NCBI GenBank assembly: GCA_016841185.1 | Contig: JAENZQ010000028.1 | Location: forward strand, 1-47,861 | Direction: 5' to 3' | DNA from: Anaerovorax odorimutans | GTDB lineage: Bacteria > Bacillota > Clostridia > Peptostreptococcales > JAAYPU01 | DNA: 47,861 nucleotides | Shown: positions 10,975 to 47,839 of the stretch, in pieces | Numbering within the stretch: position 1 is the first letter of the stretch | Layout: the number at the start of each line of letters is the position of its first letter | Notes under the pieces: generated by a model | What the model saw: the letters and a program-made list of their open reading frames with translations, nothing else | Told to the model about the DNA's origin: nothing | Database searches by the model: none | Position numbers and translations under genes: made by a program

Positions 10975-11150
10975 CTATTTTGCACAGCCGATGTGTTTTT
11001 GCATTGTTAAGGTTCACTTTGTTCTGCCGGTCACCCGGCAGGTTTGTAAAACCTCTTCGACCCGAAGAGCCGCAGGGGCATCCGCCGAATTTTCGATACT
11101 CCCCTGACCTCGTCAACTATAAGATACAACGATCTTACAGTTCTGGCGCT
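10975..11150 (-). ncRNA. glmS ribozyme (GlcN6P-sensing self-cleaving riboswitch)
   Basis: On the minus strand the sequence begins AGCGCCAGAACTG (cleavage expected between 11150 and 11149) and continues with the conserved GTTGACGAGG...GGGG...TATCGAAAATTCGGCGGATGCCCC core and the P3/P4-like stems (GCCGGGTGACCGGC). This is the glmS ribozyme: glucosamine-6-phosphate acts as a cofactor for self-cleavage, which destabilises the glmS message. The core ends about 130 nt before the glmS start; my 3' limit is approximate. Confidence 0.93.
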
Positions 11151-11241
11151 TTGTTTGAGTTATTTTCTCCTATCTGCTCATGAATCACCTCCTTAAAGGT
11201 TATGGTTTATAGATAAAGATTTATGGTTAAGTCTCTTGTAC

Positions 11242-15395: not shown

Positions 15396-16652
15396 CTATT
15401 CTTCCTTGGAAATCCTAACCTCTAAGGTATTTTCTTCCATCTCGATCATCTTAATATCCTTGTCGGTAGACCAAGTCACTTTTACGGAATGTTTTCCTTC
15501 CCCATCTAAATCACTTAAATCAAGAGAAAGTGTAATGTCTTCTTTTGAAAGAGTCCCGATAACGCTTTCAATATCTTGAACAGTTAGTCTGACAGGTTCC
15601 GAGGTTTCTATCTCGGCATCATATCCATCCGCTAACCCTGTAATTTGTATTTCTTCCGGATCGTAGAGCAAGTCCATACTTATAATCTTTTCAACATACA
15701 CCCTTATTTTGGGCTGCTTTTCAGGATTCACAAATTGTACATTTTCAGGCAAATCAATGGATAAAATAAAATCCTTAGTCTCTGAAATACCTTCAACAGA
15801 CACTTGTTGAGCTTTAATACCGTCTATTGCTTCTATATTTTCTGTCCTTCCCATAATTTCAACCTTGGAAGGTATCTGCACCGTGGATGTGATTTCATAC
15901 CCTCCGGCAGGAGACCCAGCGGTTGTTACGTCTATAGGCACGCTTTTTACGCGATATATGGGTACATATACATTCACATAGGGATCTTCCGATTGAACAC
16001 CTAATACTTCATCACCTCCACTATCTACCATCCTGAAAGTAAAGTTTTGCTGAATATCCTGATCCGTATCATTTAAATTAACGGTAGCAACCACATGATC
16101 TACAGATTTTACAAAGGTCTCTGGCCCGGACACCATAATTTCCGGCTGCTCAACAACAGGTGACCCATGAATATACCCTGAAGCGGCTGATCCTGTAAAC
16201 TCGATTTGAACAGGCTTAGGTCTTCTGACCACTTCATCCAGAGTAACCTTTATTTGAACCGGTTCCATAGACTCAACCTCCAGATTTGACGGAAGGTTTA
16301 CTTCAACAGGTACACTGTTTTCTCCTTTGCTAAAGCCTCTGATATCTGCAATGGCATTTATATCTTGAGGAGTGATGTCTACGATATCACTCCTTCTGCC
16401 CCTTACCTGAATATTAACGGAATAATAATCCTGCCCCATAACGATTAGGCCTGCCTGAGCCAATTTCTCCACATTTACCAGTTTAACTTCTATATTTTTA
16501 ACCTCAGATACAATTTCCGGGTTGACTTCTCCGATTACATACATCCATAAAACAATGGCAATAATAACGGATGCAATTTTAGTCATTATGCTGGTCCCTT
16601 TTTTAGGCATTTTTCTGCTTTTGTTAAGCAGGTTGTCAAAAAAGTTATTCAT
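15396..16652 (-). CDS. cdaR: CdaR, YbbR-domain regulator of c-di-AMP synthesis
   Basis: 418 residues. One N-terminal membrane helix (about 24-42, IASVIIAIVLWMYVIG) anchors a series of extracytoplasmic YbbR repeats, visible as repeated VxVxGxxxxV patterns (IQVRGRRSDI, IMVSGPETFV, VEIMGRTENI). Family members bind and modulate CdaA at the membrane. ATG at 16650-16652 has GGAGG upstream and overlaps the end of cdaA by 8 nt, so the two are translationally coupled. Confidence 0.95.
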   Translation of the reverse strand: MNNFFDNLLNKSRKMPKKGTSIMTKIASVIIAIVLWMYVIGEVNPEIVSEVKNIEVKLVNVEKLAQAGLIVMGQDYYSVNIQVRGRRSDIVDITPQDINAIADIRGFSKGENSVPVEVNLPSNLEVESMEPVQIKVTLDEVVRRPKPVQIEFTGSAASGYIHGSPVVEQPEIMVSGPETFVKSVDHVVATVNLNDTDQDIQQNFTFRMVDSGGDEVLGVQSEDPYVNVYVPIYRVKSVPIDVTTAGSPAGGYEITSTVQIPSKVEIMGRTENIEAIDGIKAQQVSVEGISETKDFILSIDLPENVQFVNPEKQPKIRVYVEKIISMDLLYDPEEIQITGLADGYDAEIETSEPVRLTVQDIESVIGTLSKEDITLSLDLSDLDGEGKHSVKVTWSTDKDIKMIEMEENTLEVRISKEE

Positions 16653-17481
16653 GCTCCTGCCTCCATATTTTTTTAATCAAAGGCATTAAAGAATTTTTTT
16701 CTTTTATTTTATTAAGATATATATTTAATAGTATGCGTTCTACAGATTTTATGTCTAAAAATCTTGACAATTTCCCATCGATACAAACGGAAATGGCACC
16801 TGTTTCTTCTGAAACAATTAAAGCAACGGCATCTGAACTTTCAGTTATTCCGATACCGGCCCTATGTCTTGTCCCTAATTCCTTGCTCAGATTTTTATTC
16901 TGTGACAGCGGCAGGACACATCCTGCAGCAAATATGACTTTTCCTCTTATAATAACCGCACCATCATGAAGCGGGGCATTCACATTAAATATATTGATCA
17001 GCAATTCTTCAGATATTTCCGCATTAAGTTTTGTACCGGTTTCAATAATATCACCGATGCCGGTTTCTCTTTCAATAATGATCAGTGCTCCCACATTATG
17101 TCTTGTAAAATATGTGATGGCCTTGATTATTTCGGAAGTGATTTCCTGTGCAACGCCTTTATCGATTTCCGTAAAGGATTTAGATAGAAACTTTCCTCTT
17201 CCCAAATACTCCAAAGCTCTTCTCATCTCCGGCTGGAATACGATAATCAATGCGATCATCCCTAATGTCATGGTGTTTTGCAAAATCCAATGAATGGTAT
17301 ACAAACCAAGCCATTGACTTATTTTTGTAACGATAAGAATAAAAGCCAGACCTTTAACAAGCTGTTCCGCACGTGTTTCCTGTATGAATTGAAGAATTTT
17401 ATACAGAACAAATGCTACAACCGCGATATCTATAATGTCTATAATCCTGATTTGTGAAAAAAGGCCCGGAAAAGCTTCCAC
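16645..17481 (-). CDS. cdaA: CdaA, membrane diadenylate cyclase
   Basis: 278 residues, GTG start at 17479-17481 with GAGGTG upstream. Three membrane helices (about 15-30, 40-58, 65-82) precede the DAC domain. Catalytic motifs NAPLHDGAVIIRG (DGA) and GTRHRAGIGITE (RHR) are both intact, and SEETGAISVCIDG is present. It condenses two ATP to c-di-AMP, which controls potassium and osmolyte transport and wall homeostasis. Operon with cdaR; divergent from apgM. Confidence 0.97.
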   Translation of the reverse strand: MEAFPGLFSQIRIIDIIDIAVVAFVLYKILQFIQETRAEQLVKGLAFILIVTKISQWLGLYTIHWILQNTMTLGMIALIIVFQPEMRRALEYLGRGKFLSKSFTEIDKGVAQEITSEIIKAITYFTRHNVGALIIIERETGIGDIIETGTKLNAEISEELLINIFNVNAPLHDGAVIIRGKVIFAAGCVLPLSQNKNLSKELGTRHRAGIGITESSDAVALIVSEETGAISVCIDGKLSRFLDIKSVERILLNIYLNKIKEKNSLMPLIKKIWRQEHE

Positions 17482-17672: not shown

Positions 17673-18890
17673 TTGACATATGAAGAAATCATAAAAAAAC
17701 ATATTTTAACAAATAACTCACAAATTGTTCTTATTATATTAGACGGATTAGGAGATATTCCTCATCCTGATTTTGATAAAAAGACACCGTTGGAATATGC
17801 AGCGACGCCTAATCTGGATTATCTGGCCAAAAACTCCATGTTGGGAAGAATCCACCCTATTCTCCCCGGTATCACCCCGGGAAGCGGCCCGGCCCATCTT
17901 GCTGTTTTTGGGTATGACCCCCTGCAGCATCAGATCGGGAGGGGCGTTTTGGAAGCATTAGGCTTAGATATCAAACTGAAACCCAATGATATTGCAGCAA
18001 GATCCAACTTTGCCTCCATGGATACAAAAGGCATTATAACCGACAGAAGAGCAGGAAGGATCAAAGATGATAAAGCGGATGCCCTTTGTGAGCTTATCAG
18101 CTCTGTTTCTGAAATCGATGGCGTAAGAATAAAGATAAAGCCCGGTAAAGAGCATCGTTTTGTCACGGTTTTCTCTTCTGAGACAAAAGAACTGGGATCT
18201 CTTATTTCCGATACGGACCCGCTTCATGATGATCTGCCGATACAGAAGGCAGCCGGAAATAACGAAAGTTCACAGTTTCTGGCTGACATCGTTAACAAAT
18301 TTACTGAAAGAGGCATGGAATTATTAAAAAATGAACACCCTGCAAATGCTTTTCTCATGAGAGGTTTTTCATCAAAACCCCGTATATTGTCCATAAGGGA
18401 TAAATACAAATTAGAAGCTGCTGCCATTGCAGCCTATCCCATGTACCGGGGAATCGCATCTCTCTTGGGTTTTTCCATATTGCCCTCTGCGGAATCCATT
18501 GAAGAACTGTTTGAAGTATACCGAAAAAATTCGAACAAATATAACTATTTTTATATTCATATCAAAGGAACCGATAAAGCCGGGGAAGACGGTGATTTTT
18601 CAGGAAAGGTAAAATGTATTGAATCCGTCGACAGAGCACTTCCTCATTTATTAAGTAAACTTCCCGATGTTTTATGCATTACCGGTGATCATTCCAGTCC
18701 TGCTCTTATGCATTCCCACAGCTGGCATCCTGTTCCCGTTCTGATCCACGGTAAATACTGCGGGTTTGACCCCACACAACGCTTTACTGAAAGTGACAGT
18801 ATAACAGGCGGCTTAGGAGATTTTGAAAGCAAATATCTCATGGGGCTTTTGCTTGCCAATGCAGGCCGGCTGCAAAAGTTCGGTGCTTGA
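17673..18890 (+). CDS. apgM: Cofactor-independent phosphoglycerate mutase, ApgM type
   Basis: 405 residues, TTG start (17673-17675) with AGGAGG 8 nt upstream. Alkaline-phosphatase-fold motifs: VLIILDGLGD at the N terminus (metal Asp), TPGSGPAHLAVFGYDP (the Ser that is phosphorylated in the family), and HIKGTDKAGEDGD...CITGDHSSPALMHSHSWHPVPVLI for the second metal site. This is the archaeal-type (COG3635) enzyme interconverting 3- and 2-phosphoglycerate; it differs from the longer GpmI. Some relatives act on homoserine phosphate, so the substrate is inferred. Stands alone on the plus strand. Confidence 0.9.
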   Translation: MTYEEIIKKHILTNNSQIVLIILDGLGDIPHPDFDKKTPLEYAATPNLDYLAKNSMLGRIHPILPGITPGSGPAHLAVFGYDPLQHQIGRGVLEALGLDIKLKPNDIAARSNFASMDTKGIITDRRAGRIKDDKADALCELISSVSEIDGVRIKIKPGKEHRFVTVFSSETKELGSLISDTDPLHDDLPIQKAAGNNESSQFLADIVNKFTERGMELLKNEHPANAFLMRGFSSKPRILSIRDKYKLEAAAIAAYPMYRGIASLLGFSILPSAESIEELFEVYRKNSNKYNYFYIHIKGTDKAGEDGDFSGKVKCIESVDRALPHLLSKLPDVLCITGDHSSPALMHSHSWHPVPVLIHGKYCGFDPTQRFTESDSITGGLGDFESKYLMGLLLANAGRLQKFGA

Positions 18891-19017: not shown

Positions 19018-19545
19018 TTAATAGGTAGGTTCAATCAATCCGTATTGCCCTTGTTTTCTTTTATAAACCACGTTGAATTCATCTGTATCGGCATTGGTGA
19101 AAACAAAGAAATTATGTCCCAGCAGCTCCATCTGCAATACTGCCTCTTCGGCACTCATAGGTTTTACATCGAATCTTTTGGTTTTAACGATTTCAATTTC
19201 TTCTTCGTTCTCTTCATAATCAGGAACCTGCTCAAATCGAATGGTTTCATGAATCTTATGCTTTTTTTCAAGTTTCGTTTTGTATCTTGTGATTTGCATT
19301 GCCAGCTTATCCACTACACGGTCAAGTGCAGTGTACATATCATGGGATACTTCTTCTGCCCGAATATTAATTCCGTCAACTGTCAGCATACTTTCAATAA
19401 TCTGGCGGTTTTTCTTTACTTCAAGGGCAACATTGATTTCCATTTCATTTTTAAAATATTTCTCGAATCTGGCAAATTTGGATTCTATTGCATTTTTTAA
19501 CGCATCAGAAACCGTAAAGTTTTTTCCTGTGATACATAGTTTCAT
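19018..19545 (-). CDS. hpf: Ribosome hibernation-promoting factor, long form
   Basis: 175 residues from ATG at 19543-19545; GGGG is 9 nt upstream of it. The N-terminal beta-alpha RNA-binding domain (MKLCITGKNFTVSDALKNAIE...RVVDKLAMQITRYKTKL) is followed by a linker and the C-terminal dimerisation domain (KRFDVKPMSAEEAVLQMELLGHNFFVFTNADT..NVVYKRKQGQYGLIEP), which defines long HPF. It pairs 70S ribosomes into inactive 100S particles in stationary phase. A SigH-like promoter precedes it. Confidence 0.97.
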   Translation of the reverse strand: MKLCITGKNFTVSDALKNAIESKFARFEKYFKNEMEINVALEVKKNRQIIESMLTVDGINIRAEEVSHDMYTALDRVVDKLAMQITRYKTKLEKKHKIHETIRFEQVPDYEENEEEIEIVKTKRFDVKPMSAEEAVLQMELLGHNFFVFTNADTDEFNVVYKRKQGQYGLIEPTY

Positions 19546-19579
19546 ACAATTCAACCCCTTTCAGCAATATATATATAGT

Positions 19580-19607
19580 ATTCTTTATGTATCATTGATT
19601 TTCCTTT
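19580..19607 (-). promoter_or_regulatory. SigH-like promoter of hpf
   Basis: On the minus strand AAAGGAAAA (19599-19607), 12-nt spacer, AAAGAAT (19580-19586). This fits the sigma-H pattern RnAGGAwWW - 11/12 - RnnGAAT, and would start transcription about 30 nt before the hpf start. Bacillus yvyD, the hpf homologue, is also read by sigma-H. Confidence 0.55.
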
Positions 19608-19722: not shown

Positions 19723-19954
19723 TGTGGATAATGTGAATAACTCTGTTGATAATTGATTTTTGGCGATTCATTAGTGTGGAAAAAAACTATTGCAGAAAGC
19801 CTGCATAAATATACCTTTATTTGTTTAGCTTGATAATATAATTGTTTAAATTTAAATGATTTAACATTGCATAAATATACAGTTTCTTTTATGAGATAGT
19901 CCATGATTCTTAAAAAAAATAAATATTGCCGTCAAAATAAATTAATGTGGATAA
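19723..19954 (-). other. Cluster of DnaA-box-like 9-mers in AT-rich DNA
   Basis: All read on the minus strand: TTATCCACA at 19723-19731 and 19946-19954 (perfect boxes), TTATCAACA at 19744-19752 and TTTTCCACA at 19775-19783. The DNA between is very AT-rich and holds a 13-bp direct repeat tgcataaatatac (19802-19814, 19868-19880). No gene is supported here. A single perfect box also occurs inside glmS (about 9053-9061), so isolated boxes are not rare; four in 232 bp in one orientation are less expected. Confidence 0.5.
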
Positions 19955-20027
19955 TTGTAAAAAATTACTTTTTAGTCTTTTTTCCATCCTCTTTACTTTT
20001 ATTTGAATTCATTTTTTTGTCGAAAAG

Positions 20028-20256
20028 GTACACGATTCAGCTGACCTGGTCTTTGACCCCACACTCGCCTGCCGGAAGGTCCGCTCCGGGGTTACCGTCA
20101 CTACTACTCCTCTCAGAAAAGATAATCCAATCTGGCAGGTCTTACTTCTAAGCCGCACCATGCTCATTAACTAAGACTTTGCTTATTTAACTTACGTGGG
20201 TTCCTTCGCCTGCGACTGGCATGAACTTTCAACCACAGACCTGAACCGTGTGACAT
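20028..20256 (-). ncRNA. Stand-alone structured RNA, 6S-like
   Basis: About 229 nt from a strong promoter. The ends pair: 20241-20251 with 20030-20040 gives an 11-bp closing stem (one G-U). Inside, GGTCT...TTGA pairs with TCAA/AGACC; GTTC-GCC/GGC-GAAC forms a local hairpin; CCCAC pairs with GTGGG; and CCGGA/TCCGG caps a hairpin inside ACCCC/GGGGT. The result is an elongated rod with internal loops, GC-richer than its surroundings, without a reading frame. Size, own promoter and rod shape suggest 6S RNA (SsrS), which binds sigma-A polymerase. I did not recognise a diagnostic sequence, so the family is an inference. No clean terminator is visible. Confidence 0.5.
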
Positions 20257-20262
20257 TGATTT

Positions 20263-20291
20263 ATATTATATAATAATCATTTTATTGTCAA
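20263..20291 (-). promoter_or_regulatory. Strong promoter of the structured RNA
   Basis: On the minus strand a perfect TTGACA (20286-20291), 17-nt spacer, TAATAT (20263-20268); TATAAT at 20265-20270 gives a 15-nt alternative. It lies just after the comFC stop, so the RNA is transcribed independently. Confidence 0.75.
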
Positions 20292-20301
20292 GACCTTTTA
20301 T

Positions 20302-21051
20302 TTATTCATTTTTCCCTATGGCATAAGTAATTATGTAAATATTTTGTGCACCTTGTCCCATCAATGCTTTACTGCATTCATCAACAGTATTTCCGGTTGT
20401 ATAAACATCATCTATTAAAAGTATGCTTTTATTTATTAATACCCCATTTGGACAGGCTTTAAAAGCGTTTTGAAGATTTTTTTTCCTCTCTTCAAGGGAA
20501 AGTTTATTTTGCGGCTGTGTATATCGAACGCGTTTCAATGCATCTGCCTTTAGGGGTATCCCTGTCAGATAAGACAGGTATCGGGCTACAAGATGAGATT
20601 GGTTGTATCCCCTCTCTCTTTCCTTTAAGGGATGCAAGGGGACAGGAACTATATAATCTATAGAAATATCAAGGCTTTTAAGTTTATCATACATCATCTC
20701 TGCTATATTTTTGCTGTAATAGCTTTTTCCATTATATTTAAAACCGATAATAAGCTTTCTTTCAAGTTCTCCGTATTCAACACATGAAAAGCCTCTGGTA
20801 AAATGATGTTTCATTTGAGTGCAATCGCTGCATCTGTCCGGAAAATACCATGATTGTAAAGGTTTACCGCATCGGCTGCAGCTTTTGCCGGCTACCCAAG
20901 AAATCTTTTGTCTGCAACTTTTACAAAGTGCATAGGGTTCGTCAAAAATAGGTGCATGGCAAGAAATGCAATAGATATCCGATGGAAAAATCAGATCAAG
21001 AAAGGTCTCTTTCAACTCAAAAAAAAACTTAAATAAATTTCTCTTCCCCAT
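20302..21051 (-). CDS. comFC: ComF-family phosphoribosyltransferase-like protein
   Basis: 249 residues, ATG with GGGGG upstream. N-terminal zinc finger (CISCHAPI...CKSCRQK...CSRCGKPL...CSDC), then a type I phosphoribosyltransferase fold with VPVPLHPLKERERGYNQS and the PRPP loop ILLIDDVYTTGNT. ComFC helps bring single-stranded DNA into the cytoplasm during natural transformation, and the family also acts in DNA repair; the reaction is uncertain. It follows recD2 by 70 bp, with a small hairpin repeat in between. Confidence 0.93.
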   Translation of the reverse strand: MGKRNLFKFFFELKETFLDLIFPSDIYCISCHAPIFDEPYALCKSCRQKISWVAGKSCSRCGKPLQSWYFPDRCSDCTQMKHHFTRGFSCVEYGELERKLIIGFKYNGKSYYSKNIAEMMYDKLKSLDISIDYIVPVPLHPLKERERGYNQSHLVARYLSYLTGIPLKADALKRVRYTQPQNKLSLEERKKNLQNAFKACPNGVLINKSILLIDDVYTTGNTVDECSKALMGQGAQNIYIITYAIGKNE

Positions 21052-47713: not shown

Positions 47714-47724
47714 TTTTTTTCAAA

Positions 47725-47839
47725 CCAGCGACGACTTACTCTTCCGGGCGGTCTCCCGCCAAGTACCATCAGCGCTGAAGGGCTTAACTGCTGTGTTCGG
47801 GATGGGAACAGGTGTAACCCCTTCGCTATAGTCACTGGA
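47725..47839 (-). rRNA. rrf: 5S ribosomal RNA
   Basis: About 115 nt, minus strand. Contains the conserved TTCCCATCCCGAACACAGCAGTTAAG-type loop, GATGGTACTTGGCGGGAGACCGCC and paired ends CCAG...CTGG. The 20 nt beyond (47842-47861) are spacer towards a presumed 23S gene outside the window. Confidence 0.97.

What the first reader, a model, noticed from the sequence alone, without database searches (positions are those of the whole stretch)
20025..20291. Promoter-driven 229-nt structured RNA, possibly 6S RNA
A perfect TTGACA promoter just past comFC drives a GC-rich tract whose ends form an 11-bp stem and whose interior forms several nested stems. There is no reading frame. Shape and size fit SsrS, but I see no diagnostic sequence, so it could equally be an undescribed RNA.
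Basis: partly seen in the sequence, partly recalled or inferred. Interest (0 to 1): 0.6.

Follow-up and report, generated by a model that had tools for sequence, protein, structure and literature searches.

The report
raiA-motif (ModT) RNA beside hpf
The stretch encodes a known, abundant bacterial non-coding RNA called raiA motif or ModT (not 6S RNA), and next to it, in front of the ribosome-hibernation gene hpf, lies a conserved cluster of binding sites for the replication initiator DnaA that I found no report of.

Summary
Window 20032-20249, minus strand, matches Rfam raiA motif RNA (RF03072, also called ModT) over its full length: 175.6 bits, gathering score 101.3, E 1e-44. It is not 6S: no 6S model matches here, and the genome's own 6S lies on another contig. 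The 11-bp closing stem and TTGACA promoter are there. Folding energy is no better than shuffles; the evidence is family match and covariation: 187 two-sided changes against 78 shuffled, and 104 of 105 conserved positions kept. Neighbours are comFC and hpf (the "raiA" gene).

It is most likely a separate sigma-A transcript acting in trans at the growth transition, as shown for ModT in C. difficile (PMC11706538), not a leader of hpf.

Outside the finding, the gap between RNA and hpf holds a DnaA-box array with fixed spacing (19723-19783), conserved in Clostridia in front of hpf whether or not the RNA is there. It occurs in 33 of 60 genomes, with none for a reversed-pattern control. I found no report of it.

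The parts
20032..20249 (-). raiA-motif / ModT non-coding RNA (RF03072), full length
   Evidence: 175.6 bits, gathering 101.3, E 1.1e-44, model 1-209 of 209; covariation; 104 of 105 conserved columns kept
20030..20251 (-). extent with the closing stem lengthened to 11 bp (20251-20241 with 20030-20040)
   Evidence: sequence
20263..20291 (-). predicted sigma-A promoter TTGACA-17-TAATAT; start of transcription expected near 20254-20258 (inferred)
   Evidence: sigma-A-type pair before the RNA in most relatives
20302..21051 (-). comFC, upstream neighbour
   Evidence: ComF family E 1.5e-31, below the model's curated cut-off
19018..19545 (-). hpf (long-form ribosome hibernation factor, the 'raiA' gene), likely start ATG 19545
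   Evidence: TIGR00741 above cut-off, two Pfam S30AE domains, start
19578..19607 (-). sigma-H-like promoter of hpf, AAAGGAAAA-12-AAAGAATAC
   Evidence: 14 of 15 consensus positions; sister genome 15 of 15
19723..19783 (-). conserved DnaA-box array in front of hpf: 19723 TTATCCACA, 19732 TTATTCACA, 19744 TTATCAACA, 19775 TTTTCCACA
19946..19954 (-). further DnaA box TTATCCACA, kept in the sister genome

Best explanation
Window 20032-20249 (minus strand) is a raiA-motif/ModT non-coding RNA (RF03072). SHOWN HERE: family match, covarying structure including pairs that I identify with P3 and the pk-1 pseudoknot, and conserved family residues. PREDICTED from sequence: its own sigma-A promoter. INFERRED from the family: an abundant transcript made during growth folds into a compact core with two pseudoknots and acts in trans to time the passage from exponential to stationary phase; in C. 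difficile its loss raises c-di-GMP and lowers sporulation (PMC11706538). The family's molecular activity is unknown. My best guess, not shown, is an RNA that binds a ligand or a protein and acts as part of an RNP, rather than a base-pairing sRNA or a cis riboswitch. The hpf gene downstream most likely has its own control: a sigma-H-like promoter and a DnaA-box array.
For: Rfam match at 175.6 bits over all 209 positions. 50 of the 57 Rfam pairs are standard in this sequence. Covariation well above shuffles and slid controls. 104 of 105 conserved columns kept. Single copy in the genome; 44 of 60 genomes searched carry it. Promoter before the RNA in most relatives, terminator-like hairpins after it in 25 of 30 loci against 8-15 shuffled. 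hpf not found within 1.5 kb downstream in 13 of 30 loci. Trans action and transition-phase role in C. difficile: PMC11706538.
Against: No expression data for this organism. No terminator near the 3' end in this window, so the 3' end is not defined and read-through towards hpf is possible. Seven of 57 Rfam pairs are not standard here, and the model's P4 register is poorly paired on this alignment (40%; RNAalifold shifts it). Function is carried over from relatives.
Confidence: 0.9

Rival explanations
1. The element is a cis-acting leader or riboswitch of hpf, transcribed together with it (Rfam files the family under cis-regulatory; riboswitch).
For: hpf lies downstream on the same strand, 477 nt from the RNA by ORF start, with no strong terminator between; same order in the sister genome.
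Against: hpf is not found within 1.5 kb downstream in 13 of 30 loci; terminator-like hairpins follow the RNA in 25 of 30; hpf has its own sigma-H-like promoter; trans complementation rules out a purely cis role in C. difficile (PMC11706538).
Confidence: 0.06
2. 6S RNA (SsrS), which binds sigma-A RNA polymerase.
Against: No RF00013 match at E up to 10; the genome's 6S is elsewhere with 85.4 bits.
Confidence: 0.01
3. A decayed or silent copy of the raiA motif RNA with no present function.
For: No terminator here; some pairs of the model not standard.
Against: 104 of 105 conserved positions are kept; the sister genome keeps RNA, promoter and neighbours.
Confidence: 0.02

Closest known systems
raiA motif RNA / ModT (Rfam RF03072; C. 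difficile ModT, PMC11706538; C. acetobutylicum structure, PMC11751092)
   Same: Full-length model match, conserved residues, P1, P3 and pk-1 pairing, sigma-A-type promoter, place between comFC and hpf, which PMC11706538 reports as the commonest neighbours (74% and 66%).
   Different: A longer hairpin loop region than most relatives (218 nt against 201-213 in nearly all others of the alignment) and no terminator close to the 3' end; expression untested.
6S RNA (RF00013)
   Same: Size, closing stem, separate gene.
   Different: No match to the model; the genome has its 6S elsewhere.
DnaA-box clusters of Bacillus subtilis outside oriC (for the neighbouring array)
   Same: Several DnaA boxes in an intergenic region away from oriC; in B. 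subtilis such regions (for example sda, yqeG, vpr) bind DnaA and some regulate transcription (PMC4447404, PMC8203912).
   Different: hpf/yvyD is not named in the main text of those papers; here the cluster sits in front of hpf with fixed box spacing. Binding is not shown.

Membership tests
raiA motif / ModT (RF03072) | Covariance-model score over the curated gathering score, full length | tested here: met
   175.6 against 101.3 bits, 1-209 of 209
raiA motif / ModT (RF03072) | Conserved secondary structure supported by covariation, with P3 and pk-1 | tested here: met
   29 of 59 pairs with two-sided changes; helix identified as pk-1 99.5% paired; P4 register weak (40%)
raiA motif / ModT (RF03072) | Highly conserved nucleotides of the family | tested here: met
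   104 of 105 columns that are at least 95% conserved in 29 relatives
raiA motif / ModT (RF03072) | Own sigma-A promoter | tested here: met
   sequence only: TTGACA-17-TAATAT, 10 of 12, similar in most relatives
raiA motif / ModT (RF03072) | Abundant, stable, trans-acting transcript | not testable with these tools
   needs RNA-seq, Northern, deletion and complementation
6S RNA (RF00013) | Match to the 6S covariance model | tested here: not met
   no match at E up to 10; the genome's 6S is on contig C77
cis riboswitch of hpf | Fixed position in the leader of the regulated gene | tested here: not met
   hpf not found within 1.5 kb downstream in 13 of 30 loci
DnaA-box cluster (the neighbouring array) | At least three boxes of the DnaA consensus close together | tested here: met
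   four boxes in 61 nt, three of them within 1 mismatch and one perfect; fixed core spacing in relatives
DnaA-box cluster (the neighbouring array) | Binds DnaA in the cell | not testable with these tools
   needs DnaA ChIP-seq or gel shift

The most novel reading that the evidence does not exclude
In many Clostridia the ribosome-hibernation gene hpf is directly controlled by the replication initiator DnaA, through an array with fixed spacing (TTATCAACA-3-TTATNCACA-0-TTATCCACA, often with a further box 31 nt upstream). This would tie ribosome shutdown to the state of chromosome replication, with or without a ModT gene in the same gap.
Probability: 0.5. Interest if true: 0.6.

Novelty: new member of a known kind. 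Interest (0 to 1): 0.35.

Why it matters
The RNA itself is one more copy of a widespread RNA whose biochemical activity is still unknown. Comparison with Spo0A shows that the RNA persists where Spo0A is not found, so its role is wider than sporulation, as others have argued. The DnaA-box array in front of hpf, if it works, would be a direct link between replication initiation and ribosome hibernation that I found no report of, and it can be tested simply.

Tried and rejected
Minimum-energy folding does not separate this RNA from shuffles on either strand, so it was not used as evidence. A first alignment was thrown away because loci on the minus strand had not been turned. A first pair count failed on a string one letter short. 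Weak Rfam matches in the RNA-hpf gap are taken as chance, all below their gathering scores. The terminator-like site at 19805-19791 is not kept in the sister genome. The idea that the DnaA boxes belong to the RNA was rejected: most arrays go with hpf, also where the RNA is not adjacent or not found, though G010 keeps an array after the RNA without hpf within reach (L038). Sporulation as the sole role of the RNA was rejected.

Full report
WHAT IS THERE. The finding spans 20025-20291. Read on the minus strand it holds a promoter (TTGACA-17-TAATAT, 20291-20263), a predicted start some 5-9 nt later, and an RNA whose ends form an 11-bp stem (20251-20241 with 20030-20040). Rfam identifies it clearly: RF03072, raiA motif RNA, window 20032-20249 minus strand, 175.6 bits against a gathering score of 101.3, all 209 model positions. 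It is the only copy found in the 3.56-Mb draft genome. The genome's 6S RNA is elsewhere (G000:C77:16215-16395, 85.4 bits) and the 6S model does not match here even at E 10. Folding energy alone is not above chance (z -0.50 and -0.77), so the 'nested stems' could not be trusted from energy.

COVARIATION AND CONSERVATION. 44 of 60 genomes (the own genome and relatives, nearly all of the same order) carry the RNA. In an alignment of 30 the Rfam structure plus two P3 pairs gives 84.5% standard pairs, 29 of 59 pairs with two-sided changes, 187 such cells (78 in shuffles, at most 100 when slid), and a covariation score of 0.272 (0.125 shuffled; 0.160 at best when slid). The helix I identify with pk-1 (P3 loop AGUCGCA with UGCGGCU; the cryo-EM structure has a seven-pair pk-1 between the P3 loop and the junction after P5, PMC11751092) is 99.5% paired with two-sided changes. 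The P4 region is poorly paired in its Rfam register on this alignment (40%), while RNAalifold finds a shifted, covarying stem. 104 of 105 columns at least 95% conserved in relatives are kept in the window.

TRANSCRIPTION UNIT. A sigma-A-type promoter precedes the RNA in most relatives. Terminator-like hairpins follow within 120 nt in 25 of 30 loci (8-15 in shuffles), though not in this window; the sister locus L017 has only a weak one 92 nt on. hpf was found downstream within the fetched 1.5 kb in 17 of 30 loci and not in 13. The hpf gene of this window has its own sigma-H-like promoter (19607-19578, AAAGGAAAA-12-AAAGAATAC, 62 nt before ATG 19545). In the sister genome it is a perfect match; 12 of 28 distinct hpf upstream regions score at least 14 of 15 (1.75 expected). 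So the RNA is best read as a separate gene. Published trans complementation in C. difficile agrees and, as reported in the same paper, so do results in C. acetobutylicum (PMC11706538).

FUNCTION. [quoted passage not shown] difficile, its levels fall on entry into stationary phase, and its loss delays the growth transition, raises c-di-GMP and lowers sporulation (PMC11706538). Its fold is a compact structure with two pseudoknots (PMC11751092). Its molecular activity is unknown. From the genomes: of 44 RNA-bearing genomes, 25 have no Spo0A over the cut-off (one split gene counted as present), and 9 Spo0A-bearing genomes have no match to the RNA (some assemblies are incomplete). The RNA's role is therefore probably wider than sporulation, as PMC11706538 argues from hosts that do not form spores.

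AN UNEXPECTED NEIGHBOUR. The gap between RNA and hpf contains DnaA boxes: TTTTCCACA 19775, TTATCAACA 19744, TTATTCACA 19732, TTATCCACA 19723 and an outlier TTATCCACA 19946, all on the minus strand. Over 30 RNA loci the 500 nt downstream hold 50 TTATNCACA where 0.8 are expected; upstream 1 against 0.95. The core geometry TTATCAACA-3-TTATNCACA-0-TTATCCACA occurs in 33 of 60 genomes (up to 3 mismatches), usually once per genome, and never for the reversed pattern; at class level in 52 of 291 (up to 2 mismatches), again 0 for the control. Of 60 such loci examined, 44 have hpf downstream on the same strand within 1.5 kb (25 of 30; 19 of 30). These include genomes in which no RNA was found (families f6 and f12) and loci where it was not found within the stretch searched, so the array goes with hpf. 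In the window's draft genome it is the only place with two perfect TTATNCACA within 30 nt on one strand. In seven genomes where the array and dnaA lie on one contig, the distance from dnaA is about 195-525 kb. B. subtilis has DnaA-box clusters outside oriC, some regulatory (PMC4447404, PMC8203912); hpf is not named in the main text of either, and full-text searches for DnaA boxes with hpf, raiA or hibernation factors found no report. The library holds only open-licence papers, so an earlier report may exist. Binding and regulation are inferred, not shown. The loci come from related genomes, so the counts are not independent events.

VERDICT. I score the whole a little higher than a plain known RNA because of the array.

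Noticed in passing
19723-19783 and 19946-19954 (minus strand): DnaA-box array with fixed spacing between the RNA and hpf, conserved in front of hpf in many Clostridia with or without the RNA; 0 hits for the reversed-pattern control.
   Followed up: partly
19578-19607 (minus strand): sigma-H-like promoter of hpf, 14 of 15 consensus positions, perfect in the sister genome.
   Followed up: partly
L038 (G010:C7, array at 18722-18751): A genome that keeps the DnaA-box array after the raiA RNA although no hpf was found within 1.5 kb downstream.
   Followed up: no
G011, G022, G033, G041, G050, G059 (family f10): Shortened raiA RNAs of about 164-178 nt with lower scores (119-141 bits), which suggests that a stem is missing or reduced in one family.
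   Followed up: no
G002, G007, G018, G029, G047, G056 and others: Genomes with Spo0A but no match to the raiA RNA, family f6 throughout; a natural set for asking what replaces it.
   Followed up: no
10999-11161 (minus strand): glmS ribozyme RF00234, 109.8 bits.
   Followed up: no
47723-47839 (minus strand): 5S rRNA, 107.9 bits, near the end of the contig.
   Followed up: no
16645-17481 (minus strand): CdaA-type diadenylate cyclase, DAC domain and CdaA N-terminal domain, about 1.5 kb from hpf.
   Followed up: no
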